From Burkholderiaceae bacterium (GTDB lineage Bacteria > Pseudomonadota > Gammaproteobacteria > Burkholderiales > Burkholderiaceae_C), in contig JAHCKM010000001.1 in assembly GCA_026125795.1 (NCBI GenBank), positions 1,054,001 through 1,118,000 on the forward strand: a DNA stretch of 64,000 bases, given 5' to 3'. The translations under genes were made by a program, and so were the position numbers. Shown one piece after another: positions 11,464-29,267 of the stretch (position 1 is the stretch's first letter; every line of letters begins with the position of its first letter). The notes below the pieces were generated by a model. It saw only the letters and a list, made by a program, of their open reading frames with translations, ran no database searches and was not told the origin of the DNA.

Positions 11464-11571
11464 CTAGGGTATGCCCCACGGCAGGCGAAGTCATTGGCCT
11501 AGTTGGACAGCGCACGCAGCTTCGATTTGTCCGCCATGGCCATAGTCCACGGTTTTGCTGCCACCTACAGT
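11464..11571 (+). promoter_or_regulatory. Decayed copy of the BMC divergent promoter, with operator and sigma70-like core
   Basis: Two blocks are identical to the promoter at 17.97-18.08 kb: CTAGGGTATGCCCCACG (11464-11480) and GGCGAAGTCATTGGCC (11484-11499). An inverted repeat GGACAG-N16-TTGTCC spans 11505-11532. The plus-strand core is -35 TAGTCC (11543-11548), 17 bp, -10 TACAGT (11566-11571), with TTTGTCC (11526-11532) 10 bp before the -35. It may now drive the membrane-protein genes that start at 11919. Confidence 0.6.
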
Positions 11572-11598
11572 CCGCGAAACAGCCGGCACCAGACCGGA

Positions 11599-11710
11599 AC
11601 ACAGGAGACAAGCGTGGTTCGAGACGAAGGCGCCTCTCACGATCCGAAGCTGGCGCACCCGAGATGGGACAGTGTCCAGATCTTCTGCTGCGTTAACGCG
11701 CAGAAAGGCA
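11599..11710 (+). pseudogene. Remnant of the 5' end of a DUF7064-like gene
   Basis: ACAGGAGACAAGCGTG followed by VVRDEGASHDPKLAHPRW and then VNAQK matches the ribosome binding site and the start of the intact gene at 18123 (VIRDADAEFHPPDPAHPTW ... YNAEE). Similarity then fades. Together with the pentamer remnant on the other side it shows that a whole divergent promoter with both gene starts was duplicated and lost its genes. Confidence 0.6.
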
Positions 11711-11918
11711 GGTCTGCCCGCTTTTGCAGATTGCCCGTCGCAGTGGCTGCTTCGATCGGCTTCAGTTGGCGACGCTGTTGTTAACGCTCCGACCAGCGGC
11801 TTCTGCAGCGCGTATCGCGGAACTCGGTCCGGGGCTCATCTGAGTACCGGATCAAGCTATTGATGCATGTGCGCACTGGTGCGCGCGGCATCGCGCGACC
11901 TACGAGGAGGGAAACCCA
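11711..11918. other. Leader region before the membrane-protein pair
   Basis: About 200 bp with no recognisable gene. It ends in a good Shine-Dalgarno (GAGGAGGG) for the ATG at 11919. No terminator hairpin is seen. Confidence 0.35.
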
Positions 11919-12506
11919 ATGGAAACGCTAGAGAAAAAGCCCTTTGGGCTGAGACTTGGCCCGACGATGTTCTCGCTGATGAGTCTGTTGATCATCGCGG
12001 GGGGCAGTTACTTGATTTGGGCGATCTTCGCCGACCCATCCCGAGCGGTATGGAAAACTTATCCCCAGCCTTTCGGGGTGGTCCTTTCTTGGTCGATTCT
12101 GTTCGTTGTGTTCTTCGGCTTTCTGGGGCAGCTCTGGGGACTGGGACAACTCCCTCAGCCGTTTGGTGGCGTTGTCTGGATCCTGCTCACCACAGTCTTT
12201 GCAGTGGTGGTCCCCAGTGTGCTGCTTCACGGGTACGGGTCAATGGACCCTGCCTTCGATATCGGCAAAGGAGGCTACACCGCGACGACGATGATCGTAC
12301 TCATCGGCTTCTACACCTGGGGCATCCTAGGTACGAGCATGGGGCACTGGCCGTGGGTCGACCTAGGCTTGAAGCAGCCCTGGGTAGGTATCGGCGGACT
12401 CTTGCTTGGCTTCGTGCTCACATTTTTTGGGTACATCCTGCTGATCTACCCGAGTCTGGCGAGCTGGACGTCCCCCGACAAGACAATTAGACAATTCTTC
12501 CGCTGA
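11919..12506 (+). CDS. Multi-span membrane protein of unknown family
   Basis: A 195-residue protein with about five hydrophobic segments (roughly residues 16-36, 50-75, 83-103, 120-141 and 153-176) and short polar loops, so an inner-membrane protein. A conserved-looking Trp-Pro-Trp lies in HWPWVDLG and a similar WPW occurs in its downstream neighbour, hinting that the two are related or pair as halves of a transporter or channel. I do not recognise the family. It is separated from the next gene by only 5 bp. It lies between the alcohol dehydrogenase and the BMC operon, so uptake of the substrate is a reasonable guess but nothing more. Confidence 0.6.
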   Translation: METLEKKPFGLRLGPTMFSLMSLLIIAGGSYLIWAIFADPSRAVWKTYPQPFGVVLSWSILFVVFFGFLGQLWGLGQLPQPFGGVVWILLTTVFAVVVPSVLLHGYGSMDPAFDIGKGGYTATTMIVLIGFYTWGILGTSMGHWPWVDLGLKQPWVGIGGLLLGFVLTFFGYILLIYPSLASWTSPDKTIRQFFR

Positions 12507-12511
12507 CGGTC

Positions 12512-13039
12512 GTGATCGGATGGTTCTATAGCGCAATCGTGTCGTGGCTTACGACTTTCCTGATCCTCGACAACTGGCCATGGAGCGCATTCGGATCTCG
12601 CGCCAAGACCGCGATCGCCGCGCTGATTGGCAACTTCATCATTGGGACGGGGATCTACTTCGGCTTCCTGGCACTGCTTAAGGGTGTCCTGGTGCCCAAG
12701 GAGGCGCAAGCGGCTCTTGGGGCTGCGATCGACATTTGGCCCGCGCACCTTGGGGTGTGCGTGTCTTTCTGGTTGATTTTCTGGGCGAACGTCGTAGGCA
12801 ACCATCCGACCAACCTCGGCGCGATCGCAAACCGGGTGATCCGATTGATCGTCACCTTCGGGCTGGCTCTGGTCACCTTCCTGGTGTATACGCGCTGGTT
12901 CGCGGTCAGCGTCTTGAACGAAAAGGAGATCGCCCCCGGCTTTGGAGGAGATCCGCTAACGTGGATTGACCTGATGATCTACGTGATGCTGGTCTACGTC
13001 ATCTACTTGGGATCGTACGGTCTGAACAAGAAAGCTTGA
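12512..13039 (+). CDS. Multi-span membrane protein of unknown family, pair partner
   Basis: A 175-residue, very hydrophobic protein with about five membrane segments; it starts with GTG (VIGWFYSAIVSW), as no in-frame ATG lies near. NWPWSAFGSR near residue 21 recalls the WPW element of the preceding protein. The product ends in a charged tail (GLNKKA), as if exposed to the cytoplasm. It converges with the BMC operon whose last gene ends 66 bp further on, with no clear terminator between. Function unknown; likely works with the preceding gene. Confidence 0.6.
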   Translation: MIGWFYSAIVSWLTTFLILDNWPWSAFGSRAKTAIAALIGNFIIGTGIYFGFLALLKGVLVPKEAQAALGAAIDIWPAHLGVCVSFWLIFWANVVGNHPTNLGAIANRVIRLIVTFGLALVTFLVYTRWFAVSVLNEKEIAPGFGGDPLTWIDLMIYVMLVYVIYLGSYGLNKKA

Positions 13040-13105: not shown

Positions 13106-14374
13106 CTAGGCTGTGGCAAGCTTTCCCAATTCGTCGATGCGTGCGGCAATACGCCCAGCCGCTTCCTGAAGCGCTTGACGCTCATCGGGGCGCAGCGGCA
13201 GTTCAACTATCTCGGAGACACCGCGTTGGCCTAGGCGTACAGGGAGCCCAACCCGGGTATCGCGCGTGCCGTAGGCGCCGTATGAGCGCACACAGGCAGC
13301 GATCATGGTGCGATCATCCCACACCATGGCGCGCACCATCATGGCCGCCGACTCAGCCGGTGAAAAATAGGCGCTTCCGCTCTGCAGCAGTTTGACTACC
13401 TCGCCGCCGGAATCGCGCGTGCGCTCAACAATGGCGCGCAAGGTGCTCGCATCGAGCAGTGACTCGAGCGGTCGATCGCCGACGAACGCCTGACTCAGGG
13501 GGATCACCATCTCGTGCCCGTGACTGCCGAGCGCCAACGCGCGCACCTCCTGTGGCGTCGCGCGGCCGGTCAGACCGACTAGTGAGCAGAAGCGCGCCGA
13601 ATCGAGTACGCCAGCCATGCCGATCACCCGTGCATCGGGAAATCCCGTTCGCGCCGCGGCGATATGTGTCATTTCCTCCAACGGATTCGTCACCACCACC
13701 ACAGTCGAATCGCTCGCGCGCACCCGAATGGCGTCACAGATCGATCCGACGATTGCCGCGTTGACGGCGGTCAGATCGGTGCGACTCATGCCGGGTTGCC
13801 TCGGTTTGCCAGCAGTGACGACGACATAGTCGGCACGGTCCAGCAGCGCTAGATCGTCGCCACCAGCGATGCGTGTAGAGAAGCCGTTCAGGGCAGCGCT
13901 GTGCGAGATGTCGAGTGCTAGCCCGGCCGCGAGTCCGGACACAACGTCGATCAGCACCAGATCTTCGAAAAGATCGCTTTCGGCGAGCCTCAGTGCCGTC
14001 ATCGCCCCGACGTGGCCAGCGCCGACGACGGCTCCCTTCGGCCTGCCGCCACGCCGCGGAACGGCGGCGTGGCGCGAGGGACCCAGCGCATTGCGTCGAT
14101 ACAAGGCCCCCGACGGCGGCAGCCCGAGCTCTGGCCCTGCTATTCCTGGTCCCCGGACAGACGGTAATGCGGCGACACCCTGCGCAGGTGGCGCAGGCAC
14201 AGGCTTCTTCGCCGCCAGCGCCTGAGCAGGTACCGAAGCATCTCCAACCACGAGTTCAACGCCCAACTCCTTTGCACGATCGCGCGCGAGCGGCGTAAGC
14301 CGGTCGCCTCTCGCAAGCACCAGGCGCTTGCCTGGGGCATTGGCCACCTCTTCGGCCGTGTAGATCTTCGTCAT
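13106..14374 (-). CDS. Malate/lactate dehydrogenase-like protein with an extra N-terminal BMC-type domain
   Basis: A 422-residue protein, about 110 longer than malate dehydrogenase. Residues 1-45 (TAEEVANAPGKRLVLARGDRLTPLARDRAKELGV) resemble the small N-terminal segment of several microcompartment-associated proteins, followed by a Pro/Ala linker to about residue 110. The rest is an NAD-dependent dehydrogenase: VVGAGHVGAMTALRL, VTAGKPRQPGMSRTDL with substrate-binding Arg, VVTNPLEEMT, LDSARF and SHGHEM with the catalytic His. It is the last gene of the shell operon. A role in recycling NADH made by the aldehyde dehydrogenase inside the shell is likely; the substrate is not known. Confidence 0.75.
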   Translation of the reverse strand: MTKIYTAEEVANAPGKRLVLARGDRLTPLARDRAKELGVELVVGDASVPAQALAAKKPVPAPPAQGVAALPSVRGPGIAGPELGLPPSGALYRRNALGPSRHAAVPRRGGRPKGAVVGAGHVGAMTALRLAESDLFEDLVLIDVVSGLAAGLALDISHSAALNGFSTRIAGGDDLALLDRADYVVVTAGKPRQPGMSRTDLTAVNAAIVGSICDAIRVRASDSTVVVVTNPLEEMTHIAAARTGFPDARVIGMAGVLDSARFCSLVGLTGRATPQEVRALALGSHGHEMVIPLSQAFVGDRPLESLLDASTLRAIVERTRDSGGEVVKLLQSGSAYFSPAESAAMMVRAMVWDDRTMIAACVRSYGAYGTRDTRVGLPVRLGQRGVSEIVELPLRPDERQALQEAAGRIAARIDELGKLATA

Positions 14375-14399
14375 CGCTCTACCTGCGCCCAGCGCGAAG

Positions 14400-15017
14400 T
14401 CACGCCTTGCCTTCCAGCGCGTTTAGTGCCTCCGTGGCGGCGCTCGCCGCTGCCTGGACGTCGCTCTCAGTGCCGGATATGAACAGGCGCCCGAAGCGGC
14501 CGAGTGCGCGAACTTCTACGATGCTGATGTCGGCAGCTTTCTCGGCCTCATTCGCCGCCAGTGCCACGTATGCGGCCGGTGCAACCTCCAGGACGTAGAG
14601 GCTACGACCGGGGATCAGCAGGTTGCCCTTGCGCCACTTGTTGATGAGCTGTGCCTGGTACGGGTTGACGTTGGTGACGAACATCGATGAAGCTAGTTTG
14701 GGCTTGACACGATCCTCCTCGCCGAGGTGTAGGTGTTCAAGCACCGCCCGCCCCGCCGCGACTACTTCGGCTTGGTTCCTCGAGTGAATCTCGAGAAGTC
14801 CAAACTCGCGCTCCACAACCTGAAGTGCGGGCCGCACGTCCGCTGCCTTAAGCGCCACGTCCGCACAGCGGAAGATTTCGTTGCCGGGTGCCACCTCTAT
14901 GTACAGCTCGGCCATCCCTGCTACTGGCACGTCTCCCTGACAGGTTGCGGCGACGTGCGCCGCAGCCTGAGGTTGCATGCGATCAATGAACGCGTAGGTA
15001 CGTAGCTGAAATTCCAT
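14400..15017 (-). CDS. BMC-T tandem-domain shell protein
   Basis: A 205-residue protein with two BMC folds in tandem: the first around residues 5-95 (AELYIEVAPGNEIFRCADVALKAADV) and the second around 105-205 (MFVTNVNPYQAQLINKW, EVAPAAYVALAANEAEKAADI, FGRLFISGTESDVQAAASAATEAL). Such proteins form pseudohexameric trimers that tile shell facets and may gate larger molecules. It lies 9 bp after the EutJ-like gene and 25 bp before the malate-dehydrogenase-like gene. Confidence 0.85.
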   Translation of the reverse strand: MEFQLRTYAFIDRMQPQAAAHVAATCQGDVPVAGMAELYIEVAPGNEIFRCADVALKAADVRPALQVVEREFGLLEIHSRNQAEVVAAGRAVLEHLHLGEEDRVKPKLASSMFVTNVNPYQAQLINKWRKGNLLIPGRSLYVLEVAPAAYVALAANEAEKAADISIVEVRALGRFGRLFISGTESDVQAAASAATEALNALEGKA

Positions 15018-15025
15018 TTGCGTAG

Positions 15026-15841
15026 TCAGCTATTGGCGATGCCAAACGGTGTGATGAGGTCAGAGTGCGGATAGCTTCTGGTTTCCCAGCCGAGGTAGTG
15101 CTCTACCACTGCGTCGGCGCCTGGGATGCGAAGGGCACCGCCGGCCAGGTGCACAACGCCTGGACTCCTGTTTCCGCATTGCTGGCGAATCGACTCGGCG
15201 ATTCGCTCGATTCCGGGGCGCACGATGTCGAGCAATTCAGCGCCGTGCGAGCGTTTGTGTGCCTCGGCCTGCTCTACAGGAAGGCGCAGTCGACCTGCGA
15301 CGATCAGGTCCAGATGATGACCGCCGCCCGCACGGTCACTCAGGCTGAGGAGTTTGCCGTCGGCAAACACGCCAACTCCGGTCGAGCCGCCGCCCACGTC
15401 GACCACTGCCCCGTCGGCAACGGCAAGCAAGGCGTTCGCCGCGCTTACCTCGTCGACCAAACGGCGGCACTCGATGCCAGCTTGTTGCAGGACGTGCGCG
15501 CAGGCGCGGCAATCGGCCAGTGGCACGGCTGGTGGATAGGCAGTAGCAGCCTCGTCGATCGATCGAGCCAGGGCGGCTTCGGCACTCCGCTTGAGGTGCG
15601 CCACTGCCTTTACCGCCCCCTGGAAGTCGACCACAACACCGTCTCGCACAGCGCTCTCGCGAACGAAATCCCACCACACTGGCATGTCGTCATCGTCGAC
15701 CGCCGCGATCACGATCGTCGCTGTGCCCAGGTCCACGCCGAAGCGCAAGGTCCCGGTGCGATCCGGCATGGGAGCTCGCAAACATGCCGCGGCGCGCTCT
15801 AGGAACGCATCGACGCGCGAAGCGGCACGCATTAGCATCAA
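15026..15841 (-). CDS. EutJ-like Hsp70-fold chaperone/reactivase of the microcompartment
   Basis: A 271-residue actin/Hsp70-type ATPase. The phosphate-1 motif FGVDLGTATIVIAAVD is near residue 33, phosphate-2 VVDVGGGSTGVGV near 148, and an adenosine-type AGGALRIPG near 235. Length and motif order fit EutJ of ethanolamine-type microcompartments. The start overlaps the stop of the aldehyde dehydrogenase gene (ATGA-type), so the two are coupled. The client enzyme is unknown; no B12 diol dehydratase or ammonia lyase is encoded in this operon. Confidence 0.8.
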   Translation of the reverse strand: MMLMRAASRVDAFLERAAACLRAPMPDRTGTLRFGVDLGTATIVIAAVDDDDMPVWWDFVRESAVRDGVVVDFQGAVKAVAHLKRSAEAALARSIDEAATAYPPAVPLADCRACAHVLQQAGIECRRLVDEVSAANALLAVADGAVVDVGGGSTGVGVFADGKLLSLSDRAGGGHHLDLIVAGRLRLPVEQAEAHKRSHGAELLDIVRPGIERIAESIRQQCGNRSPGVVHLAGGALRIPGADAVVEHYLGWETRSYPHSDLITPFGIANS

Positions 15842-17238
15842 AGCCCCATGGTCGGCGAGTAGAGGTCACGCCACGGACGGTTCTCGTGGGCAACACGCTT
15901 GATGTTGATCAGGTGCATCGGGGTCACGTTGTCCGATACGATCGAGCCACTCCAGGTACCGGTGCCGAGCATGAAGCTCGGGTCGGTGCCCGCACTAAAA
16001 CCCATCCCACCGAGGAGGCTCGGCGTATTGACGATGATGCGCGACGCTGGTAGGGACGATAGTCGCGCGATCATCGCTTCGTCACGGCCGTGAATACCTA
16101 GCGTGTGACCGGCACCCCCAAACGCCAATACCTGCCCGCAGCGGGCGTAGGCCGCTTCAAGGTCGGCGGCGCGGTAGAACGACAGCACCGGCCCGAGGAT
16201 TTCCGCCGACAGCGGCGCACGAGGGCCGACTTCGGTGAGCAGCGCGCCCAGCACTTTCGTCGACGCTGGCACCCGCACGCCGATGCGCTTCGCCAGCTCG
16301 CCTGCAGATTGACCCACCGCCTCGGGATTGAGAGCGCCACTTCTTCCCTCGAAGACCAGTTCCGCCAGCTTCGCCTGCTGATCAGCGTTGAGAAACACCG
16401 TGCCATGTTCTTCGAAGGCTTTCAAGGCTGCATCGGCGATTGGCTCGTCGAGCACCACCGTCTGCTCGGCGACGCACGCGGTACCGTTGTCGAAGGCCTT
16501 CGAAGTGACAACCATAAGCGCCGCCTCACCAACATCTGCGACGGAGCGATGGATGTACACAGGCACATTGCCAGCCCCTACGGCCAGTGTCGGTTTGCCG
16601 CTCGAGTAGGCGGCCCGAACCATTCCGGCGCCGCCAGTGGCCATGACCAGCGCCACGTCGCGATGCGCCATCAGCTCGCGGGTTGCGGATAGCTGCCCAC
16701 CTGTCAGGCAGTCAAGCAAACCGCGCGGCGCGCCAGCCCGTTCGGCCGCCGCGGACATGATTGCCACCGTGCGAACGCAGCACTTCGCCGCACGGGGATG
16801 TGGCGCACACACGATGGCGTTGCCGGACTTGACCGCCGCGAGGCATTTGAAGATCGTGGTCGAAGTCGGGTTGGTCACCGGAATGATGCCGGCGATCACA
16901 CCCATCGGTGCACCGATCGCGGTGACCCGGTTCGGCTCATCGACCCACAAGACCCCGAGCGTGCGCATCTGCAGCATCGCATGGGCGACGAACTTTGCGT
17001 TGTAGAGGTTCTTGAGGATCTTGTCCTCGTACACGCCGTAGCCGGTCTCGTCGACGGCCAGGCGCGCCAGCTCCGCGGCGGCCGCCTCGGTTGCCGCGGC
17101 CATGGTGCGCACGAGCGCGTCGGCCTGCTCCTGCGTGACGCCCTGGAAGGCGTCGAACGCGGCTCGCGCCGATCGCGCCTTGGAGCGCGCCTCGCCGATG
17201 GCGAGGAGCTCCGCGTCGAGCTGCGTGGGGCCGTTCAT
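15838..17238 (-). CDS. CoA-acylating aldehyde dehydrogenase (PduP/EutE type)
   Basis: A 466-residue protein that would convert an aldehyde plus CoA and NAD to an acyl-CoA inside the shell. NPTSTTIFKCLAAVKSGNAIV and GAGNVPVYIHRSVADV are typical of PduP/EutE; the catalytic Cys lies in DNGTACVAEQ near residue 257. The N-terminus (ELLAIGEARSKARSARAAFDAF) is a likely amphipathic helix and could act as an encapsulation peptide. It follows the hexamer shell gene by 34 bp. Because no aldehyde-forming signature enzyme is next to it, the aldehyde is unidentified; hydroxyisobutyraldehyde is the best contextual guess. Confidence 0.9.
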   Translation of the reverse strand: MNGPTQLDAELLAIGEARSKARSARAAFDAFQGVTQEQADALVRTMAAATEAAAAELARLAVDETGYGVYEDKILKNLYNAKFVAHAMLQMRTLGVLWVDEPNRVTAIGAPMGVIAGIIPVTNPTSTTIFKCLAAVKSGNAIVCAPHPRAAKCCVRTVAIMSAAAERAGAPRGLLDCLTGGQLSATRELMAHRDVALVMATGGAGMVRAAYSSGKPTLAVGAGNVPVYIHRSVADVGEAALMVVTSKAFDNGTACVAEQTVVLDEPIADAALKAFEEHGTVFLNADQQAKLAELVFEGRSGALNPEAVGQSAGELAKRIGVRVPASTKVLGALLTEVGPRAPLSAEILGPVLSFYRAADLEAAYARCGQVLAFGGAGHTLGIHGRDEAMIARLSSLPASRIIVNTPSLLGGMGFSAGTDPSFMLGTGTWSGSIVSDNVTPMHLINIKRVAHENRPWRDLYSPTMGL

Positions 17239-17272
17239 CGCTCACGCTCGCGCAGGCGTGTCGCGCGCGGCT

Positions 17273-17587
<315 letters not shown>

Positions 17588-17619: not shown

Positions 17620-17937
17620 TCAGGGTTTGACGAAAGTGGTTCGGCCATCGAGCTGCACCGAATCGACTATGGCGACGACGGCGGCGTCGGTCGGCACCGA
17701 CTGGCCCTCGCGCTCGACCCGCGCAGCGCTGCCGTGCACGACCAGCACTACTTCGCCGACTCCGGCTCCGGCAAAGTCAACGGCGACATACATCTGTAGC
17801 GGTTCAGCATCTTTCGACGCGAACTCGCCGAGCGGATCCGAAGCCTCGACCGGCTGCAGCAGCAGCAGCTTGTGCGCGGCCAGGCCCCGGGCCTTGACCG
17901 ACGCGACGACGGTACCCCGTACCTGTGCGAGCTTCAA
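17620..17937 (-). CDS. BMC-P pentameric shell vertex protein (EutN/CcmL family)
   Basis: Caps the shell vertices. The fold is seen in LAQVRGTVVASVKARGLAAHKLLLLQPVE and VAVDFAGAGVGEVVLVVHG. Two starts are possible: GTG at 17958 or TTG at 17937. I prefer TTG because GGAGACA lies just upstream as a Shine-Dalgarno, the product then begins KLAQVRGTVV like other family members, and both elements are kept in the decayed copy at 11.4 kb. It is the first gene of the minus-strand shell operon pentamer-hexamer-aldehyde dehydrogenase-EutJ-tandem shell-dehydrogenase. Confidence 0.88.
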   Translation of the reverse strand: MKLAQVRGTVVASVKARGLAAHKLLLLQPVEASDPLGEFASKDAEPLQMYVAVDFAGAGVGEVVLVVHGSAARVEREGQSVPTDAAVVAIVDSVQLDGRTTFVKP

Positions 17938-17970: not shown

Positions 17971-18078
17971 CTAGGGTATGCCCCACGAACGGCGAAGTCA
18001 TTGGCCGGGCCGGACAGCCCGTACCGCCCCGATTTGTCCGCCGCTGCCATAGACACCAAATTCGGCGCTCCCTAGAGT
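17971..18078. promoter_or_regulatory. Divergent promoter between the two microcompartment operons
   Basis: Plus strand: operator TTTGTCC (18033-18039), -35 TAGACA (18050-18055), 17 bp, -10 TAGAGT (18073-18078). An inverted repeat GGACAG-N16-TTGTCC spans 18012-18039, two helical turns centre to centre. Minus strand: -35 TGACTT (18000-17995), 16 bp, -10 TACCCT (17978-17973) would give a leader of about 28 bases to the TTG start. The blocks at 17971-17987 and 17991-18006 recur unchanged at 11464-11499. Likely bound by the GAF/PucR activator encoded at 23471; binding is inferred. Confidence 0.65.
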
Positions 18079-18122: not shown

Positions 18123-19127
18123 GTGATTCGCGACGCAGACGCCGAGTTCCACCCGCCCGACCCGGCCCACCCGACCTGGGCCGAGACCAACTACTTCGGC
18201 TTCTACAACGCCGAGGAACATCTGAACGTCGGCGTCTACGCACTGTTTCGCACCAATCTCGGAACGGTAACGTCGTCGATCTGCATCAACTCCCGGCGCA
18301 CGGTGACGCACTGGGAGGCCGACTACTGCGACATGCGTTCGGCCATCCCGATCCCGCAACCGCGCAACCTGCGGGACTATGCGCTGAGCAACAGCCTGCA
18401 CGTGCGCTGCCTCGAGCCCAACCGCGTCTGGCGGATCCACTATGACGACGGGCACGAAACCCGCATCGACGTACGCTACGAGGCGCTAATGCCGGGCTTC
18501 GACATTCACGACCCAGCAATGGACCCGATGTGCGCCTCGGCCTCGCACGAAGGCAAGTTTGCCTGGGGCACGGCCTACAACGGGCACTTCGACCAGACCG
18601 GCGTGTTCACCGGCAGCGTCACCCTCCGCGGGCGCAAGGTGCCGATCGATTGCGTGTCGACGATGGACCACAGCTGGGGTCCACGGCCCGAGCGCGGCGC
18701 CCCGGCGATGAGTTGGCTGCACGGCCACTTCTCAAGTGACTTGGCGATTCACGCGATCCTGGGCTTCGACCCGGCGCGCGACAACGGGCGCGAGCTGTGG
18801 CTGGCGCACGGTTACGTGCTGGAGCGCGGCAAGGTGTTCGGTCTGAAGGCCGGGGTCGGGCAGACGGTGCGCAAGCAGGAGCGTTATCCCGAGACCATCG
18901 CGCTGCGGCTCACCGACAGCGCAGACCGCGTGTGGGAAATGAACGGGCGCACGCTGACCACCATGCCGTGGGTCTACGTGCCCAACAGCATCGGCTTCAA
19001 CACGCTCAGCGAATGGACCTGCGGCACTCAGCGCGGCTACGGTGAGGTCATGGACTTCATCGAGCTGCCGGTGCTGAACGCGCTGAACAGCGCTTTTGCG
19101 ACCCTGCGGCCGTCCAAGCCGCTTTGA
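18123..19127 (+). CDS. DUF7064-like protein, function unknown
   Basis: A 334-residue soluble protein without signal peptide or membrane segment. Its WAETNYFGFYNAEEHLNVG start and the later STMDHSWGPRPERG and WLHGHFSS segments recall proteins annotated as DUF7064/DUF7065, a lipocalin-like fold related to AttH/CrtC; I am not certain of this. I chose GTG at 18123 because AGGAG lies 7 bases upstream; a GTG at 18108 would place that site inside the gene. It is the first gene of the plus-strand operon facing the BMC operon. A decayed copy of its first codons lies at 11.6 kb. The fold suggests binding of a small hydrophobic ligand. Confidence 0.6.
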   Translation: MIRDADAEFHPPDPAHPTWAETNYFGFYNAEEHLNVGVYALFRTNLGTVTSSICINSRRTVTHWEADYCDMRSAIPIPQPRNLRDYALSNSLHVRCLEPNRVWRIHYDDGHETRIDVRYEALMPGFDIHDPAMDPMCASASHEGKFAWGTAYNGHFDQTGVFTGSVTLRGRKVPIDCVSTMDHSWGPRPERGAPAMSWLHGHFSSDLAIHAILGFDPARDNGRELWLAHGYVLERGKVFGLKAGVGQTVRKQERYPETIALRLTDSADRVWEMNGRTLTTMPWVYVPNSIGFNTLSEWTCGTQRGYGEVMDFIELPVLNALNSAFATLRPSKPL

Positions 19128-19141
19128 GCGTCGCCGCAGTC

Positions 19142-21405: not shown

Positions 21406-21438
21406 AGCCGGCGATTCGCCGACTGGAAAGGACAGCAA

Positions 21439-21897: not shown

Positions 21898-21916
21898 CTC
21901 ACAAGGAGATCCAAAG

Positions 21917-22366: not shown

Positions 22367-22445
22367 GTGTCAACACAGTCCGGCGGAACGGCTTGCGCGG
22401 CACTTCCGGGCGCGAACCGCCGCCGCCTGTTTTTTCAGAGGAGAG

Positions 22446-23054
22446 ATGGCCCGGTCGCGCTGCCTGGGCCATCGGTTGATGATGCTTGCCGAACCAAACT
22501 TCCTCGTTCTCAACGCGGTCTACCTGAAGAAAGTGGTGGGTGCGCCGCAGATCGCCGAGATGACCGGCGTGTCGTCCGATGACGTGGCGCGCTGCCTCGC
22601 GGCGGCCACCGAACAGGGTTGGCTCATGGACATGGGACCGGACGGCGTGATGGTGCTCGACGACGGCATCACCGAGGTCAAGCGGCATTACGACGAGGCT
22701 TATTCGGACCTCCGCTCCAACCCCGCGTTGAGCGATTGGTACCAAGGCTTCGAGTCGCTCAACACGCGCTTCGTCGCCGCGGTCACCGAGTGGCAGGAAA
22801 GCGGCGGGGCGGATCGCAGCGAACGGCGCGTCATGCAAGCCGCCGAACGGCTCGCCAAGGACATCGCGCGGCTCGTGCCGTTCATCCCGCGCTATGCGAG
22901 CTACGTCAGCCGGCTCGAGCGCAGCACGGAGCGCGTCGACGAAGGCGAGCGCGACTACGTCTGCAATCCGATCGTCGACTCGGTCCACAACGTCTGGTTC
23001 GAGTTTCACGAGGACATCCTTACCGTGCTTGCCAAGCCACGCGACACGACATGA
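22446..23054 (+). CDS. Unknown protein with N-terminal winged-helix-like region
   Basis: About 190-202 residues; the start is either ATG 22446 or ATG 22479/22482 (AGGAG lies very close to the first). Residues about 12-55 ([42 protein letters not shown]) look like a winged helix, followed by a mostly helical domain ending in [23 protein letters not shown]. It could be a small regulator or an accessory subunit of the preceding three-gene unit. It is followed by the second hexamer shell gene. Confidence 0.55.
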
Positions 23055-23160: not shown

Positions 23161-23457
23161 ATGAGTGACGGCTTGCACGGAACTGCCTTGGGATTCGTCG
23201 AGACGATTGGCAAGGCGGCCGGCATGCACGCCGCCGATGCGATGGTCAAAGCGGCGAACGTGACTCTGCAGACGGCGCAGCAGCCGGGCGGCGGCATCAT
23301 CACCGTGATCGTCCGCGGCGAGGTGGGGGCGGTGCAGGCGGCCATCGAGGCCGGTGCTGTCGCTGCGCGTAGCGTGGGCAAGGTACGCGCCGTGCATTTG
23401 ATTGCGCGCCCACACGAGGAGATCGAGGCCATCCTGGAGCGGCCTCCTGTCCGCTAG
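23161..23457 (+). CDS. BMC-H hexameric shell protein (second copy)
   Basis: A 98-residue single BMC domain: [26 protein letters not shown], pore loop [28 protein letters not shown] and a [15 protein letters not shown]-terminus nearly the same as the hexamer gene at 17273. The different residues before the Gly-rich pore loop (QQPGGG against REQIGGG) could give a different permeability. Its place in the divergent operon ties the unknown three-gene unit to the shell. Confidence 0.92.
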
Positions 23458-23470: not shown

Positions 23471-25762
23471 ATGCACAAGGCGAAGCGCAGCGGACACCTG
23501 GTCGTCGTCTCACAGCCGTCGGCGGCAGGCGACCCCGCGCCGGCCGTCGACGCGGTCGGGGGGCTCGGCGAGGCGCTGCGCGCGATGGCCGACGCCGCGC
23601 TCGCATCCGAGCAAGGCGTGAAGGAGATTGCGGCCGAGCGCTTCGCCGCGGTTCTCGGAGGGCACGATGCGATCGTCGTCGAACGTTCCGGCATGGGCTG
23701 GTGCTGTGTCGGCAGCCGTGCTTCCCGGCTGGGCGACCGAGCGGCCGAAGTTCCGGCAACGGTCCCGATGTCGCGCGACATCGTCGTCCTGCCCGGGGTC
23801 GGCGCCTTCATCTCCGTGAAGCCGGACGTAGGCGTCCTGACCGATCGCCAGGTCATCGAGGCAGACCGCGCCGTCATGCTGCGCTCGCTCGCGATCGGCT
23901 TCGACCTGGCACTCACGGCGGCAACGCAGAACCGGGTCACGCGCGACGCGATGAACGAGATCGGCAGCCTGCAGCAGATCGCCAAGCGCATCCTGTCCGC
24001 GGGCGAGCTGGACGAGGTCGTGTTCTCGATCACGCGCGAGACGACCCGGCTTCTCGGCGCGGACATCGGCGGGGTGTTCCTGCGCGACGGCGACGAGCTC
24101 GTCATGCGCAGCTGCGTCGGCAACGACACCTTGAATATCGACCGGCTCAGGATGAAGCGAGGACAGGGGCTAGCCGGCCGCGTCCTCGATACCGCGCTCC
24201 CATGCAGGGTCGACGACTACCTCGGCAGCGAACAGCTCAACCGCGACTTCTTCTGGCTCGCGCGCGACGAGCATATCCGCTGCGCCGTGGGCGCGCCGCT
24301 GCATGCCCGCGGAGAGGTGATCGGCGTGCTCGAAGTCTGGCGCCGGCGCAACGTGCCGTTCACCGACCAGGACGTCCAGCGTCTGGTCGCGCTCGCCAAT
24401 CTCACGACAATCGCGATCCAGAACGCCCAGCTCTACGAGAGCCAGAAGGCCGCCATGGGGCAGCTGACGCAAACCAACGAGAACCTGCGCCGGCAAAACG
24501 AGTTCGTGCAGCTGTCTGCCCAGCTCCAGGACGACCTGATCGGGGCATTGCTCGTAGGCGGTGGCGTGACCGCGATTGCCCGGATCGTGGCCCGCCATGC
24601 GGCGGTGGAGGTCGCGATCCTGGGCACCGATTTCGGGGTCATGGCGGCATATCCCACGAGTGTCGCGGACGCCGCCTGGCTGGCCCGGGCCGAGACTGCC
24701 AGCCTGCAGTTGCCCGGGCACGCCAACAGCACGACCGCGACCGCACGCTGGCAGGATGCTTGGCTTTCGCTGCGGCCGATCGTCGCCGGCGGCAACCGGA
24801 TCGGCTGGGTCAGCGCGCTTTCGCCGACCGAGCCCGGCGACATCCAGGAAGTCGCGATTCGTCAGGCGGCCGTCGCCAGCGCGCTCTATTGTCTCGAACA
24901 GCGCTCGGCCAGCCAGGCCCGCGCGTCCGCGCTCAGTGCGTTGATGTGGGACCTGCTCGAAGGCACGCCGCCGGTCAGGCAGTCAGCGCTCGATCGGCTG
25001 ATGGACTTCCACATCGACCTGCAGGGGCCACACCGAGTCGTCCACGGCACGATTGACGGGCTGGCCGAAACCGCGCGCGGCGAAGGCTGGAACATGGACA
25101 CGATCGAGCGCAAGCAGCGTGCCGTGCTCGAAGCCAGCGAGCACGCGCTCAGCACCGTGTCGCTAAAGCTGATTGCCTCGCGCGGTGACCTGGTGGTGGC
25201 CATCATATCCGCGCTGGACGCCGCTCGCGCAACCCGGGTGCTCAAGTCGCTACACGAGGAGATCCTGGCGAAGGACGGGGTGAGGACCTTCTGGGGCGTC
25301 AGCGCCCCCAGCGAATCACCGTCGCAACTGCCGAGCGCGAACCACGAGGCCCGGTGCGCAACGCTTGCGGTCGCGAAGCTGGGGACGCCGAAGAACCCGG
25401 TGGTGATCCACGAACACCTGGGCGTGCTGACGCTGCTGCTGCAAGGCAGTGAAATCGCCGACGGGCGGGATCTGCGCAAGTTCATCAACCGCATCCTGGG
25501 CCCGATGCTCAAGTACGACTCTGCCCACCACGGCGTCCTGGCCAAGACGATCCGGGCCTATCTGGACAACGACTGCTCGCTGAAGCTCACCGCGCAACAG
25601 CTGTTCGTCCACGATAAGACGGTCCGCTACCGCCTGGCGCAGTTCGAGGAGTTGACCGGCGTTGACCTGCGCCGGCACCGCGAACGGATGTCGGTCGACC
25701 TCGCGCTGCTGATGCGCGACTTCGCGACGCGCTTGGCGGACAGCGACGGCGCCGAGGGCTGA
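23471..25762 (+). CDS. GAF-domain PucR/CdaR-type transcriptional activator
   Basis: A 763-residue regulator. Residues about 1-160 form a divergent sensor domain, about 165-330 a GAF domain (DEVVFSITRETTRLLGADIGGVFL ... GVLEVWRRRNVPF), followed by a coiled linker, and the C-terminal PucR region ends in the helix-turn-helix QQLFVHDKTVRYRLAQFEELTGVDL near residue 720. It starts 13 bp after the second hexamer gene, so it is likely autoregulated with the shell genes. A frameshifted paralogue lies at 8078-10280. It is the best candidate to bind the TTTGTCC boxes at the BMC and Rieske promoters; the ligand is unknown. Confidence 0.85.
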   Translation: MHKAKRSGHLVVVSQPSAAGDPAPAVDAVGGLGEALRAMADAALASEQGVKEIAAERFAAVLGGHDAIVVERSGMGWCCVGSRASRLGDRAAEVPATVPMSRDIVVLPGVGAFISVKPDVGVLTDRQVIEADRAVMLRSLAIGFDLALTAATQNRVTRDAMNEIGSLQQIAKRILSAGELDEVVFSITRETTRLLGADIGGVFLRDGDELVMRSCVGNDTLNIDRLRMKRGQGLAGRVLDTALPCRVDDYLGSEQLNRDFFWLARDEHIRCAVGAPLHARGEVIGVLEVWRRRNVPFTDQDVQRLVALANLTTIAIQNAQLYESQKAAMGQLTQTNENLRRQNEFVQLSAQLQDDLIGALLVGGGVTAIARIVARHAAVEVAILGTDFGVMAAYPTSVADAAWLARAETASLQLPGHANSTTATARWQDAWLSLRPIVAGGNRIGWVSALSPTEPGDIQEVAIRQAAVASALYCLEQRSASQARASALSALMWDLLEGTPPVRQSALDRLMDFHIDLQGPHRVVHGTIDGLAETARGEGWNMDTIERKQRAVLEASEHALSTVSLKLIASRGDLVVAIISALDAARATRVLKSLHEEILAKDGVRTFWGVSAPSESPSQLPSANHEARCATLAVAKLGTPKNPVVIHEHLGVLTLLLQGSEIADGRDLRKFINRILGPMLKYDSAHHGVLAKTIRAYLDNDCSLKLTAQQLFVHDKTVRYRLAQFEELTGVDLRRHRERMSVDLALLMRDFATRLADSDGAEG

Positions 25763-25780
25763 AGACCGCGACCCCGCCGG

Positions 25781-26596
25781 TCACGCTGCCGAGGGTTCGG
25801 AAGCCGGCTCGGTGAGCTGGTCGCGCAGCTTGCGGCGGCGCTCCTCGTCGAAGCCCAGACCGCGCGCCAGGAAGTTGTCGACGTCACCAAAGGCGGATTC
25901 GATCGATTCGAAGGCGGCCTCGATATAGCCTGGCCTGGCGGCCGTGAACACTTCTGCCACAGAGGCCGGGGTTCCCGGCGGCATCAGGTGCCCGATGTCG
26001 CGGCGATAGGCATTCGTCAGCAGGTAGTCTTCGACGATCACCGATTTTGGCGCGCCGATTGCCATCAGGATGACGGCCGCGCCGAAACCCGTGCGGTCCT
26101 TTCCGCTCACGCAGTGGATCAGCATCGGCCGCCCTCCTGCCTCCTCCACCGCTTCGAGCATGCCCCGGAATTCTGCGCAATGCTGCAACGGATAGAGCCG
26201 GTAGTGCCCGGTGACGGCCCGCTCGATGGCGGCGGCGTCGATCCGCAGCTGGCGCAGGTCTTCCAGCATTTCCGCCACACCGTGCGGCCAGAAGCCGAAC
26301 TGCGCGATCCTCGGGTTGGCACCGGCCGGCAGCCGGTTCGGGTGGCTCGCGCGTTCGTGCGGCAAGCGGAAGTCGATCACGCCATGGAGGTCCAGCGCGG
26401 CGACGAGTTCGAGATCCCGGCCGGTCAGCGCCGCCAGCGAGTCCGAGCGGAACAGGCGGCGCCAGCGTGTTCGCCGCCCTTCGCCTACCGGATAGCCGCC
26501 CAGGTCGCGAAAGTTCACCGCACCTTCGAGCGGAAGCCGGCGATGCCAGTCGGCGCGCTGCGGATGCAGTGATGGAACGTCCACCTTGTCGCCCAT
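25781..26596 (-). CDS. Tyrosine-phosphatase-fold protein (IphP family)
   Basis: A 271-residue protein with the Cys-based phosphatase loop HCVSGKDRTG near residues 159-168 (HCx5R) and the family N-terminus EGAVNFRDLGGYPV. Such enzymes remove phosphate from proteins, lipids or small molecules. It is the third gene of the Rieske operon, starting 102 bp after the reductase. Its end nearly abuts the activator gene on the other strand. A small-molecule role fits the other phosphoryl-transfer genes in the locus but is inferred. Confidence 0.8.
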   Translation of the reverse strand: MGDKVDVPSLHPQRADWHRRLPLEGAVNFRDLGGYPVGEGRRTRWRRLFRSDSLAALTGRDLELVAALDLHGVIDFRLPHERASHPNRLPAGANPRIAQFGFWPHGVAEMLEDLRQLRIDAAAIERAVTGHYRLYPLQHCAEFRGMLEAVEEAGGRPMLIHCVSGKDRTGFGAAVILMAIGAPKSVIVEDYLLTNAYRRDIGHLMPPGTPASVAEVFTAARPGYIEAAFESIESAFGDVDNFLARGLGFDEERRRKLRDQLTEPASEPSAA

Positions 26597-26697
26597 GGTT
26601 GCGTGCTCTCAGGGAGCCGCCGGGCCGCCCCAGGCCTTCTCGACCCACACGGGGAGCAGGCCGGGCGCAGCCCGGCCCTGGTGGCGCGTAGAGGCGG

Positions 26698-27708
26698 TCA
26701 CAGGTCGAGGACCAGCAGTGCACCGTGCGAGCGCGAGACGCAGGTGGTCAGGAACTGCGTACGCGCTTCGGCGTTCAGCACGTAGTCCCGATGGTCGACC
26801 TCTCCGGAGAAGTAGCGTACCTTGCAGGTCCCGCACAGCCCGCTTTGGCAGGACATCGGTATTTCGATACCGTGCTCGCCGAGAACCTGAGCGATCGACT
26901 TGTCGTTGGGCACGGTCAGCACTTCACCCGTACTGGCAATCTTCAGCTGGAAGCCGAGCGCCAGCGCTTCGCTGCCGACGTCCGGGACCTCCTCGGCGGA
27001 AACCACCGGAGCGCCGACAAAGTACTCGCAATGCACGGCCTCCGCGGGCCAGTGCGTGCAGGCCCGCGCGCAGGCCGCCATGAACCCCTGCGGACCGCAG
27101 TAGTTCAGCTGCCATCCGGGCTCGTAGCGGCGCAGCAGCGCGGCGATGTCCAGTCCGTTGGCCGGATGGCCGCCGTCGTAGTGCATGACCACGCGCCCCG
27201 TGGCCACCAGCGGCTCGAATTCCTCGTGGAACGCAGCGTGCGCGCGCGACTTGGCGCAGTAGTGCAGCACGTAGTCGGCACCGAGTTTCTCGAGCCGGTG
27301 CACCATCGCCTTCAGCGGCGTGATGCCGATGCCACCGGCGAGCAAGAGATAGTAGGGCGCCGTCTCCACCAGCGGGAAATTGTTGCGAGGCCGTCCGACA
27401 GCGACCAGCCGCTGCGTGTGCACACGCTCGTGGATGGCGATCGACCCCCCGCGGCCGTTGTGTTCGCGCAGCACCGCGATCAGGTAGCGCCGCCGCTCCT
27501 GCGGATCGTTGCACAGCGAGTACTGCCTGACGCGTCCGTCCCGGAAGTACAGGTCAATATGCGCTCCGGCAGTGAACTCGGGCAACTCACCGCCGTCTTC
27601 GGGCACGAACTCGTAGGCATTGATGCCGATTCCCTGGTAGGTGATCTGCCGCACCCGCAGCCGCAACGCCGTCTTCGGGTACTTGTCGGCGGACTCCAAC
27701 TGATACAT
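26698..27708 (-). CDS. mdpK: Rieske-oxygenase reductase (FMN/2Fe-2S), MdpK-like
   Basis: A 336-residue phthalate-dioxygenase-reductase-type flavoprotein passing electrons from NAD(P)H to the oxygenase. The FMN site is GRVRQYSLCND near residue 58, the nucleotide site LLLAGGIGITPLKAM near 118, and the plant-type ferredoxin domain at the C-terminus has CQSGLCGTCKVRY plus a later Cys (TTCVS). It starts 44 bp after the oxygenase gene. The name follows the TBA monooxygenase reductase of Methylibium/Aquincola and rests on the neighbouring oxygenase. Confidence 0.75.
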   Translation of the reverse strand: MYQLESADKYPKTALRLRVRQITYQGIGINAYEFVPEDGGELPEFTAGAHIDLYFRDGRVRQYSLCNDPQERRRYLIAVLREHNGRGGSIAIHERVHTQRLVAVGRPRNNFPLVETAPYYLLLAGGIGITPLKAMVHRLEKLGADYVLHYCAKSRAHAAFHEEFEPLVATGRVVMHYDGGHPANGLDIAALLRRYEPGWQLNYCGPQGFMAACARACTHWPAEAVHCEYFVGAPVVSAEEVPDVGSEALALGFQLKIASTGEVLTVPNDKSIAQVLGEHGIEIPMSCQSGLCGTCKVRYFSGEVDHRDYVLNAEARTQFLTTCVSRSHGALLVLDL

Positions 27709-27752
27709 GCCGCTTCCCGCCAAGGCCCCTGACGGACCCCCCGTGTCGCGAG

Positions 27753-29174
27753 TCAGACGTTCGCCTCGATTTCGTCGAGGCGCCGCATGATGTGCGGCTT
27801 GCGCTGCGCGAGCGGCAGTTCGTCGCATTCCCTCATGGCCGCGAACACCTGATGCGCCGCCTTGCGGATGATTTCCCTGTCCTTCTCATGGTCGGCGTGG
27901 CGGCGGATGTTGAGCCTGGTGTCGGAGCAGTAACGGGGCAGCGTTTCGCCGCGGCTGGCGGCGGCCTTGACTCGCGCCGGGTCCGGCGGCGTCTTGCCGG
28001 CCACGGCGTCCCGCAGCAGTGCGCGGCACATGTAGACGCCCACGTCCGAGCGGCCGGGATGCTCAAGGCTGTGGAGGGCCTGCGCGCCTTGGCTGGTGAT
28101 GGCCTCGTAGTCGCCCGGAACCCGCTGCTTCTCGTCGTAGCTGCGATGCCGGGTTTGTCCGATCAGGAAGTCGATCTTGTCCACGCCGCAATCCTGCTCC
28201 CGCCCGTTGTGCTCTGGGTCCACCTCGTCATTGAAGTGCCGCCATCCGAAGGCGATCGAGTGCTCGTCGTCGACGGGCACCTGCCAGCGGGACATGGCCG
28301 GGCCGGAGTGGCGCTGCGGCGCAGCCGCCACGATCGCGGCATTCTGGCACCAGTTGGGGAAAGCCATCTCCGAAATGCGAATCCAGACGCTCTCGTCCGA
28401 CAGTCGCCGCCCGGCGGTGAAGATCATGCCGTTGTTGCCGTGGGTCTGATGCCAGTCGACCACGGGCATCTCACCGAAGCCACCCATCAGGCTCGCGCCT
28501 TTGGCGAGCTTGGCGTCCACTCCCGCGACTGTCATGTTGTTGTGCAGCAATGCGGTGTGGTAGTGATCGATCAGATTCTCGAAAACCTGCAGCCAGTTGC
28601 AGTCGAACACGTTGGAGAACGGCACCAGGCGCGTTCCCTTCGGCATCACGTAGCCGTCAAAGACGGGAAACGCCGGCTTCTGATCCAGCGGCCCCATGTA
28701 AGCGAACACCAGGCCGTCGCGCTCGAAAGCCGGGTAGGCACCCTGGCAGACGGTGTCCTTCAAGCGCGAGTCGGCGGGTTCGGCCGGCGTCTCCAGCACT
28801 TTGCCGTCGACGTCGAACTGCCAGCCGTGATAGCAGCAGCGGATGCCGCGTTGCTGCACGATCCCGAATTCGAGCGAAGCCCCGCGGTGGGCGCACTTGC
28901 GGTGCAGCACGCCGACGTTGCCTTCGCGATCCCTGAACGCCACCAGATCCTCATGCATGATCCGGATAGCCTTCGGGACATCTGTCAGCTCTTGCGACAA
29001 GCACACCGGCTGCCAGTACCGACGCATGTACTCACCCATCGGGGTACGTGGCCCGGTGCGCATGATTTCGTGGCTCGTCGGCGCCGCGATCTGCTGGTCG
29101 CGCAACAGGTAGCCGCTATACGACGCGCCTTGTTCGGCGGCAGGTGCAGCAGCTTGACGTTCGCTGGTAATCAT
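27753..29174 (-). CDS. mdpJ: Rieske non-heme iron monooxygenase, MdpJ-like (tertiary alcohol hydroxylase)
   Basis: A 473-residue oxygenase. The Rieske 2Fe-2S site is CAHRG ... CCYHGW near residues 95-117 and the mononuclear iron site DHYHTALLH near 220. The sequence (TPMGEYMRRYWQPVCLSQELTDVPKAIRI, VPFSNVFDCNWLQVFENLIDHYHT) closely recalls MdpJ, which hydroxylates tert-butyl alcohol to 2-methylpropane-1,2-diol and desaturates tert-amyl alcohol; this is from memory, not a search. AAGGAG lies 8 bases before the ATG. Its promoter has the same operator and core as the microcompartment operon. Substrate assignment is supported by the hcm genes downstream. Confidence 0.75.
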   Translation of the reverse strand: MITSERQAAAPAAEQGASYSGYLLRDQQIAAPTSHEIMRTGPRTPMGEYMRRYWQPVCLSQELTDVPKAIRIMHEDLVAFRDREGNVGVLHRKCAHRGASLEFGIVQQRGIRCCYHGWQFDVDGKVLETPAEPADSRLKDTVCQGAYPAFERDGLVFAYMGPLDQKPAFPVFDGYVMPKGTRLVPFSNVFDCNWLQVFENLIDHYHTALLHNNMTVAGVDAKLAKGASLMGGFGEMPVVDWHQTHGNNGMIFTAGRRLSDESVWIRISEMAFPNWCQNAAIVAAAPQRHSGPAMSRWQVPVDDEHSIAFGWRHFNDEVDPEHNGREQDCGVDKIDFLIGQTRHRSYDEKQRVPGDYEAITSQGAQALHSLEHPGRSDVGVYMCRALLRDAVAGKTPPDPARVKAAASRGETLPRYCSDTRLNIRRHADHEKDREIIRKAAHQVFAAMRECDELPLAQRKPHIMRRLDEIEANV

Positions 29175-29221
29175 CTGAGGATCTCCTTGCCATAGAGGTC
29201 CATACGGACACCCTGCGCGGC

Positions 29222-29267
29222 AGTCTAGCCAGCGCCACAAGTGATGTCTTTGGCGGCGCCGGACAAA
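29222..29267 (-). promoter_or_regulatory. Promoter of the Rieske operon with TTTGTCC operator
   Basis: Read on the minus strand: TTTGTCC (29267-29261), -35 AAGACA (29250-29245), 17 bp, -10 TAGACT (29227-29222), predicted leader about 40 bases. The distance from TTTGTCC to the -35 and to the -10 is the same as in the promoters at 18033 and 11526, and TTTGTCCG, GCCA and GGCGCT are shared with the BMC promoter. The upstream GGACAG half-site of those two is not present here. Confidence 0.65.

What the first reader, a model, noticed from the sequence alone, without database searches (positions are those of the whole stretch)
11526..29267. One promoter layout links the microcompartment and the Rieske monooxygenase
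Three promoters share TTTGTCC, then after a fixed 10 bp a -35 (TAGACA, AAGACA, TAGTCC), a 17-bp spacer and a -10 (TAGAGT, TAGACT, TACAGT). They are at 18033-18078 (+), 29267-29222 (-) and 11526-11571 (+). Identical spacing at three sites up to 18 kb apart suggests a common activator, probably the GAF/PucR protein at 23471, and a single regulon joining a shell system to a tertiary-alcohol hydroxylase.
Basis: seen in the sequence. Interest (0 to 1): 0.82.

Follow-up and report, generated by a model that had tools for sequence, protein, structure and literature searches.

The report
Shared promoter module for tertiary-alcohol genes
Five promoters with one identical layout probably switch on, together, a bacterial protein-shell compartment and the oxygenase thought to attack tertiary alcohols such as tert-butyl alcohol, and related bacteria keep the layout, so one sensor protein may control both.

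Summary
All three sites exist. Two more lie on the other strand: 18018-17973(-), facing the shell operon, and 11511-11466(-). The core is a 15-bp dyad, TRKCC-N5-GGMYA, abutting the -35 hexamer. A profile built without window or monooxygenase sites gives exactly these five at E<=0.3 in the 6.57-Mb genome (150 of 6258 candidates scored) and the monooxygenase promoter in 6 of 6 genomes searched. It misses two other orthologues, whose sites were recognised by weight matrix. In 59 other genomes the best score is 19.0 bits, against 25.8-30.9 here.

The activator is not shown. Best candidate: the GAF/PucR protein at 23471 (PucR-A). A paralogue, PucR-B, accompanies the shell operon in relatives. Dyad position 6 is G in 17 of 17 PucR-A-cluster sites and A in 7 of 7 PucR-B-cluster sites; recognition helices differ.

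Caveats: the 11.5-kb and 18.0-kb modules are duplicates. Shell and monooxygenase share class-A sites here and in G487; in PM1, G485, G488, G489 and G490 the shell sites are class B. Nothing was tested experimentally.

The parts
18033..18078 (+). promoter 1: dyad 18035-18049, -35 TAGACA 18050-18055, 17-bp spacer, -10 TAGAGT 18073-18078; faces the DUF7064...BMC-H2-PucR-A gene row
   Evidence: R1 29.8 bits; layout in front of DUF7064 in 8 of 8 loci read, several identical in sequence
   Evidence: R1 28.2 bits; same layout, with variants, in front of the other shell operons read
29222..29267 (-). promoter 3: dyad 29265-29251, -35 AAGACA, 17 bp, -10 TAGACT; faces mdpJ-mdpK-phosphatase (ATG 29174)
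   Evidence: held-out R2 17.6 bits; conserved at orthologues
11526..11571 (+). promoter 4: duplicate of promoter 1; points to the membrane-protein gene pieces 11919-13039
   Evidence: held-out R2 25.2 bits, best in the own genome
   Evidence: held-out R2 17.2 bits; direction towards ADH read from coordinates
18123..19127 (+). DUF7064/DUF7065 protein (Rv3169-like, far below that model's cut-off), first gene of operon 1
19124..20062 (+). HAD-family hydrolase
20158..23054 (+). K1 (20158-21405), K2 (21439-21897), K3 PEP-utilising mobile domain (21917-22366), K4 possible winged-helix protein (22317-23054, start uncertain; orthologue annotated MarR family in PM1)
   Evidence: K1 87-93% identical to the 7 other loci aligned
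23161..23457 (+). second BMC-domain shell protein, directly before PucR-A
23471..25762 (+). PucR-A: GAF, GGDEF-like, HTH_30 regulator; proposed activator, last gene of the row behind promoter 1
17620..17937 (-). EutN/CcmL shell protein, first gene of the shell operon
13106..17587 (-). shell operon: BMC-H 17273-17587, ALDH 15838-17238, EutJ-like 15026-15841, CcmP-like 14400-15017 (below the CcmP model's cut-off), malate-dehydrogenase-like 13106-14374
10291..11334 (-). zinc alcohol dehydrogenase, downstream of the shell genes in relatives (L006, L008, L077, PM1)
8078..9943 (-). PucR-B homologue interrupted by an in-frame TAA and shorter than intact relatives
27753..29174 (-). MdpJ-type Rieske oxygenase, 82% identical to the one in M. 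petroleiphilum PM1
25781..27828 (-). MdpK-type ferredoxin reductase (26698-27828) and tyrosine-phosphatase-family protein (25781-26596)
11919..13039 (+). gene in two frames here, one 372-aa 'membrane protein' gene in PM1 (MPE_RS22070); no Pfam match
35316..39953 (+). hcmB, hcl, MeaB-like, hcmA (2-hydroxyisobutyryl-CoA mutase pathway); no R1 match in front
   Evidence: gene roles from PMC7176365 (passages)

Best explanation
The five sites are activator-dependent sigma-70-type promoters of one local regulon. SHOWN by sequence: each has a 15-bp inverted repeat of consensus TRKCC-N5-GGMYA ending right at the -35 hexamer, a 17-bp spacer and weak hexamers; the dyad centre would fall near -43 if transcription starts about 7 bp after the -10. 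Divergent modules put two dyads 33 bp apart, centre to centre, in the modules compared. The block is conserved in front of the same genes in related genomes. INFERRED: a dimer of the GAF/PucR protein at 23471 (PucR-A) binds the dyad and contacts RNA polymerase as a class II activator when its GAF domain senses a tertiary alcohol or a metabolite of it. It switches on (i) the shell operon, (ii) the divergent gene row that ends with pucR-A itself (positive feedback), (iii) mdpJ-mdpK, and (iv) a membrane-protein gene and an alcohol dehydrogenase through a duplicated copy of the divergent module. The paralogue PucR-B, which in several relatives follows the shell operon and would read a sister site with A at dyad position 6, is broken here. 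The shell promoter carries the PucR-A class of site, so the shell compartment appears to have come under PucR-A.
For: Held-out profile R2 (11 sites from relatives, none from the window or from mdpJ) gives in the own genome 5 matches at E<=0.3, the five described sites, and the mdpJ promoter in 6 of 6 genomes searched (places identified). Those genomes were chosen after one search had shown hits there, and the mdpJ 46-mers of PM1, G485 and G486 are identical. Model R1, which was trained on the window sites and the PM1 mdpJ site, puts the five at 25.8-30.9 bits, next 14.1. G487 mdpJ has the exact layout (weight matrix 33.9, next best 9.1). Dyad complementarity 91 of 140 at the true centre, 14-69 of 140 at the 11 other shifts tested. 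18-bp gap in 12 of 12 divergent modules listed (in L076 one site was located by that spacing, its letters equal those of PM1's). Position 6: G in 17 of 17 sites of PucR-A clusters, A in 7 of 7 of PucR-B clusters. HTH helices differ, VH[DE]KTVRYRL against VHRKT[IV]xxRL. G488, whose mdpJ cluster holds an A-like PucR with VHEKTVRYRL, has G at its mdpJ site and A at its shell site. G487 has class-A sites at shell and mdpJ and a single PucR match, of type A. In the PM1 shell locus, 443225-457591, PucR-B is the only gene annotated as DNA-binding (the table is incomplete by design and has small hypothetical genes). G355, with an mdpJ-like gene (58-59%), has no PucR match at E<=1e-15 and no R1 match in L019. 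PucR-type GabR, AdeR and PutR bind inverted repeats of 21, 24 and 17 bp (PMC7652997, passages).
Against: No binding, expression or start-site data. The same passages say that the site of B. subtilis PucR itself is not palindromic (PMC7652997). Sites of one cluster share ancestry, so the position-6 split may be inheritance rather than recognition. The window's 11511(-) copy has A at position 6 while its twin 11526(+) has G. orf11919 of G488 (A) lies between clusters with different PucR proteins. K4 is a possible second DNA-binding protein behind promoter 1. The mdpJ sites of G487 and G488 score 11.7 bits and nothing with R1 and are not found by R2; they were recognised by a weight matrix that includes window and PM1 mdpJ sites, and by position. 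The -10 fits TAnnnT in 24 of 28 sites only (my count; exceptions include the G487 shell site). The whole-genome tool scored 150 of 10113 (R1) and 150 of 6258 (R2) first-look candidates, so weaker sites may be missed. A secondary symmetry (69 of 140) joins TGTC to the GACA of the -35. A third, distant PucR-like gene (26%) exists elsewhere in the genome.
Confidence: 0.72

Rival explanations
1. The dyad is the site of another regulator, most plausibly the possible winged-helix protein K4 (annotated MarR family in PM1), acting as repressor or activator.
For: K4 is encoded behind promoter 1 and kept in relatives; PM1 annotation; weak MarR_2 and other winged-helix matches below cut-off; a 15-bp dyad would also suit a MarR dimer (general knowledge).
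Against: No K4-like gene is annotated in the PM1 shell locus, which has the sites, and tblastn at E<=1e-8 listed none in L076, L077 and L078. K4 also accompanies K1 in L009, L010 and L012 (Actinobacteria) and L007, where R1 had no match at E<=10. The G/A split follows the PucR paralogue.
Confidence: 0.15
2. Shared descent only: the promoters are copies of one ancestral promoter that moved with rearranging gene blocks; the likeness carries no present co-regulation.
For: The 11.5-kb and 18.0-kb modules are duplicates; the clusters are rearranged between genomes. Two minus-strand sites keep -10 TACCCT although no EutN gene was found behind them (L004, and L005 beside DUF7064).
Against: The mdpJ promoter shares only the 46-bp block with promoter 1, flanks at chance. 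Between the window and PM1 the mdpJ block keeps 36 of 46 positions (25 of 29 in dyad, -35 and -10) against 25 of 60 upstream and 18 of 64 downstream. In L005, where the EutN gene next to orf11919 is broken, the -10 is TTCCAA.
Confidence: 0.08
3. The block is a general promoter type of this genus or family (for example a sigma-factor signature), not a pathway switch.
For: The hexamers fit sigma-70 weakly; only the 18033 pair was listed by the consensus scan of 17900-30000.
Against: Only five matches in the own genome at E<=0.3; in 59 other genomes the best is 19.0 bits (run with stricter filters that lose some weak matches).
Confidence: 0.03

Closest known systems
PucR-family local activators (Bacillus PutR, AdeR; Corynebacterium glutamicum GabR)
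   Same: Local regulators of catabolic genes; inverted-repeat sites of 17, 24 and 21 bp; GabR, encoded divergently to its target operon, binds two inverted repeats in the intergenic region (PMC7652997, passages)
   Different: Here a long GAF plus GGDEF-like protein in Betaproteobacteria; several candidate target promoters including shell genes and a Rieske oxygenase; a 15-bp dyad abutting -35; two paralogues with sister sites
mdpJK / hcm tert-butyl alcohol pathway of Methylibium petroleiphilum PM1
   Same: MdpJ 82% identical; hcmB-hcl-meaB-hcmA order as in PM1; PM1 Mpe_B0555 listed as tert-butyl alcohol hydroxylase (PMC4517660, passages; that this is the gene matched here is inferred from its being the only match at E<=1e-60)
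   Different: PM1 keeps its shell operon with its own PucR-B apart from the PucR-A and mdpJ genes. I did not see this promoter module in the listings or passages returned; most of those papers were not opened
Substrate-induced metabolosome operons (PDU with PocR, EUT with EutR)
   Same: Shell operon with a local regulator
   Different: PocR- and EutR-type regulators are reported there (PMC4207490, passages); the words PucR and Methylibium do not occur in that main text

Membership tests
PucR-family regulator (PucR-A) | C-terminal HTH_30 domain | tested here: met
   PF13556 77.2 bits, cut-off 27
PucR-family regulator (PucR-A) | GGDEF-like domain before the HTH (in about half of the family, PMC7652997) | tested here: met
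   PF17853 37.5 bits, cut-off 24.5
PucR-family regulator (PucR-A) | N-terminal PucR domain PF07905, by which PMC7652997 defines the family | tested here: not met
   PF07905 is not among the 5 families listed at E<=0.001; the protein has GAF instead, so 'PucR-type' here means the HTH_30 and GGDEF-like half
PucR-family regulator (PucR-A) | binds its target promoters | not testable with these tools
   dyad exists; binding not measured
Class II activator-dependent sigma-70 promoter | activator-type site abutting -35, sub-optimal hexamers, 16-18 bp spacer | tested here: met
   28 distinct sites compared; they were aligned without gaps, so the spacing was part of the selection; TAnnnT in 24 of 28 (my count)
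Class II activator-dependent sigma-70 promoter | transcription starts there and depends on the activator | not testable with these tools
   no transcript data
Tertiary-alcohol MdpJ oxygenase | orthology to characterised MdpJ with MdpK neighbour | tested here: met
   82% over 97% of the query to the PM1 protein, which lies next to a PDR/VanB oxidoreductase
Tertiary-alcohol MdpJ oxygenase | activity on tert-butyl or tert-amyl alcohol | not testable with these tools
   inferred from orthology
Bacterial microcompartment locus | BMC-domain and EutN shell genes plus an aldehyde dehydrogenase | tested here: met
   PF00936 at 17273, 14400 and 23161, EutN 17620, ALDH 15838; assembly of a shell not tested

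The most novel reading that the evidence does not exclude
The compartment is a previously undescribed metabolosome for tertiary-alcohol breakdown, perhaps enclosing the aldehyde formed after MdpJ. In this lineage its control was handed from a dedicated paralogue (PucR-B, now broken) to the monooxygenase regulator (PucR-A) by conversion of class-B sites into class-A sites, a natural example of one regulon absorbing another.
Probability: 0.35. Interest if true: 0.8.

Novelty: new variant of a known kind. Interest (0 to 1): 0.62.

Why it matters
If true, it gives a concrete, testable cis-code that ties a bacterial microcompartment of unknown substrate to the key enzyme of tert-butyl alcohol degradation, with close counterparts in the model strain PM1. 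It names a candidate sensor for fuel-oxygenate metabolites, useful for biosensors, and offers a pair of paralogous regulators with matching site variants to test how regulator specificity and regulon fusion evolve.

Tried and rejected
A GntR/FCD regulator lies between pucR-A and hcmB in PM1; none was found among the window ORFs scanned with Pfam in and around the cluster, so it was dropped as the common activator. Sites in front of hcmB (35316) and the Ldh_2 gene (29377) were looked for with R1 at E<=10 and not found; two further weak window matches (14.1 and 11.0 bits) lie in coding DNA. A fold of K1, to learn the compartment's chemistry, gave mean pLDDT 31.3 and was not used; K1 had 5 matches in solved structures, best E 0.34. 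Intrinsic terminators in 17900-30000: 4 found against 6.1 in shuffles.

The Fisher p-value for the position-6 split (2.9e-6) is not relied on, because the sites are related by descent. In one search one site (L077, and its identical copy L078) was read one base off and appeared as C; one search reads L077 correctly as A. Identical 46-mers were dropped before counting, and four sites with mixed or uncertain PucR assignment (two at 11.5 kb, G488 mdpJ, G488 orf11919) were left out of the 17 and 7. R1 was built from 17 sites: near-identical ones (L011, L013 DUF7064) and two EutN-side sites with changed -10 (L005, L013) were left out. R1 hits at mdpJ of G485 and G486 are not an independent test, since their 46-mers equal the PM1 site in R1; R2 is. 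Three of the 29 R2 matches (14.3-14.7 bits; G485 twice, G490 once) are at no known cluster site. R1 lists about fifteen matches in the 60-genome run at E<=0.05, of which five are the window's and ten are scattered in 9 of the 59 other genomes at 16.1-19.0 bits. The shell operon of G486 was not examined.
Full report
OBSERVATION. The three sites are present as described. Two more with the same layout lie on the opposite strand, 18018-17973 and 11511-11466. At 18.0 kb and 11.5 kb the sites therefore form back-to-back pairs. The two pairs are duplicates of each other: 116 nt at 72% identity, extended into the gene starts on both sides. The mdpJ site at 29267 is separate: it matches the 18033 site at 35 of 46 positions inside the block, but at 16 of 60 upstream and 14 of 60 downstream.

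SURROUNDINGS. The genes are: a shell operon on the minus strand (EutN, BMC-H, aldehyde dehydrogenase, EutJ-like, CcmP-like, malate-dehydrogenase-like); a divergent gene row (DUF7064, HAD, K1-K4, a second BMC-H at 23161-23457, PucR-A at 23471-25762), taken here as one operon from order and spacing; mdpJ-mdpK-phosphatase on the minus strand; and hcmB-hcl-meaB-hcmA at 35.3-40.0 kb, the route of 2-hydroxyisobutyryl-CoA (gene roles from PMC7176365, passages). Thus promoter 18018(-) faces the shell operon, 18033(+) the row that ends in the regulator, 29267(-) the oxygenase, 11526(+) a gene called membrane protein in PM1 (in two frames here, one gene in PM1), and 11511(-) the alcohol dehydrogenase.

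RELATIVES. The operon-1 protein K1 led to 10 loci and, in 149 genomes searched, to 3 with a match, the own genome included and one of them at 34% only. One genome, G065, is Methylibium petroleiphilum PM1: its second contig has the length of plasmid NC_008826, 599444, and mdpJ at the same place. Of 9 genomes searched with MdpJ, 8 hold orthologues of 78% identity or more; G491 (Pseudonocardia) has none.

CONSERVATION. Orthologous promoters keep the layout: DUF7064 in 8 of 8 loci read (several are identical in sequence); shell operons in 7 of 7 read (window, G487, G488, PM1, G485, G490, G489; G485 and G489 are identical, and the G487 shell site has GACACT as -10); mdpJ in 8 of 8 orthologues. For mdpJ, six are found by the held-out profile in the six genomes given to it, G487 by weight matrix with the exact layout, and G488 by weight matrix with a weaker match (16.5, next unrelated 6.3 after the overlapping orf11919 sites). 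R1 gives the G487 site only 11.7 bits and misses the G488 site; R2 misses both. The more distant mdpJ-like gene of G355 has no R1 match (L019).

SPECIFICITY. Model R1 (17 sites, window sites and PM1 mdpJ among them) finds in the own genome five matches of 25.8-30.9 bits, then 14.1. Model R2 (11 sites, no window and no mdpJ site) finds in the own genome the same five and no other at E<=0.3, at 25.2, 20.8, 19.8, 17.6 and 17.2 bits. Over the six genomes it lists 29 matches, of which 26 are cluster sites and 3 (14.3-14.7 bits) are not. Some of the 26 are training sites or their near-copies; the window sites and the mdpJ sites are not. In 59 genomes other than the own, R1 reaches at most 19.0 bits (stricter filters). 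The tool scores a limited number of first-look candidates (150 of 10113, 150 of 6258), so weak sites elsewhere are not excluded.

ANATOMY. 28 distinct sites were compared. The 15 bp before the -35 form a dyad of consensus TRKCC-N5-GGMYA: 91 of 140 mirrored positions are complementary, against 14-69 at the 11 other shifts between -4 and +7. The 69 belongs to a secondary symmetry between TGTC and the GACA of the -35. In 12 of 12 divergent modules listed the two dyads are separated by 18 bp; one second site (L076) was located by that spacing and is identical to the PM1 site. The hexamers are weak, as expected for activator-dependent promoters; the -10 fits TAnnnT in 24 of 28 (my count).

WHO BINDS. 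Several PucR-type activators bind inverted repeats, though B. subtilis PucR itself does not (PMC7652997, passages). PucR-A has the HTH_30 and GGDEF-like domains with a GAF domain in front, not the PF07905 domain. Two paralogues exist. PucR-A goes with K1-K4 and, in the genomes with mdpJ at 82% or more, with mdpJ in the same genome; PucR-B follows the shell operon in PM1, G485, G488 and G490. In the window PucR-B carries an in-frame TAA. Sites in PucR-A clusters have G at dyad position 6 in 17 of 17, sites in PucR-B clusters A in 7 of 7; of the four sites left out, the twin sites at 11.5 kb have G and A. The A-like PucR of G488 shares the A-type helix, and its cluster's mdpJ site has G. G487 has a single PucR match, of type A, and class-A sites at shell and mdpJ. 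This favours PucR as the binder but does not prove it. The main rival, K4, is not among the genes annotated in the PM1 shell locus.

INTERPRETATION. Most likely PucR-A, made from its own target operon, activates shell, operon 1, mdpJK and the two genes at the duplicated module in response to a tertiary alcohol or a product of it. The ligand, the binding and the direction of control are inferred. Shared class-A sites for shell and oxygenase are seen in the window and in G487; in PM1, G485, G488, G489 and G490 the shell sites are class B. G486's shell operon was not examined.

LITERATURE. Searches for microcompartment with tert-butyl alcohol, 2-hydroxyisobutyr-, PucR or Methylibium (2, 2, 3 and 4 papers) and for mdpJ with regulator or promoter terms (3 papers; 20 of 70 listed) showed, in the listings and in the passages that I opened, no description of this link. 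Only open-licence papers are held, and most listed papers were not opened.

Noticed in passing
window 23161-23457: Unremarked BMC-domain shell gene directly before the PucR-A gene. L006 and L013 show a similar gene there; none was listed in L004, L005, L011 or PM1.
   Followed up: partly
window 20158-21405; L004-L013: K1 is 87-93% identical between Betaproteobacteria, a deltaproteobacterial MAG and Actinobacteria, with no Pfam or NCBIfam match: an unusually conserved protein of unknown function beside a PEP-utilising mobile domain.
   Followed up: partly
window 8078-9943: PucR-B homologue interrupted by an in-frame TAA; uninterrupted relatives exist in PM1 and others.
   Followed up: yes
window 11919-13039: Gene in two different frames here, one open frame in PM1.
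   Followed up: partly
window 13106-14374: Malate-dehydrogenase-like protein with about 110 extra N-terminal residues before the Ldh_1 domain, possibly a targeting extension.
   Followed up: no
window 46689-56858: Integrases and transposases of several families border the pathway cluster, suggesting mobility.
   Followed up: no
NC_008826 443225-457591: The plasmid of PM1 that carries mdpJ also carries a shell operon with PucR-B, about 45 kb away.
   Followed up: partly
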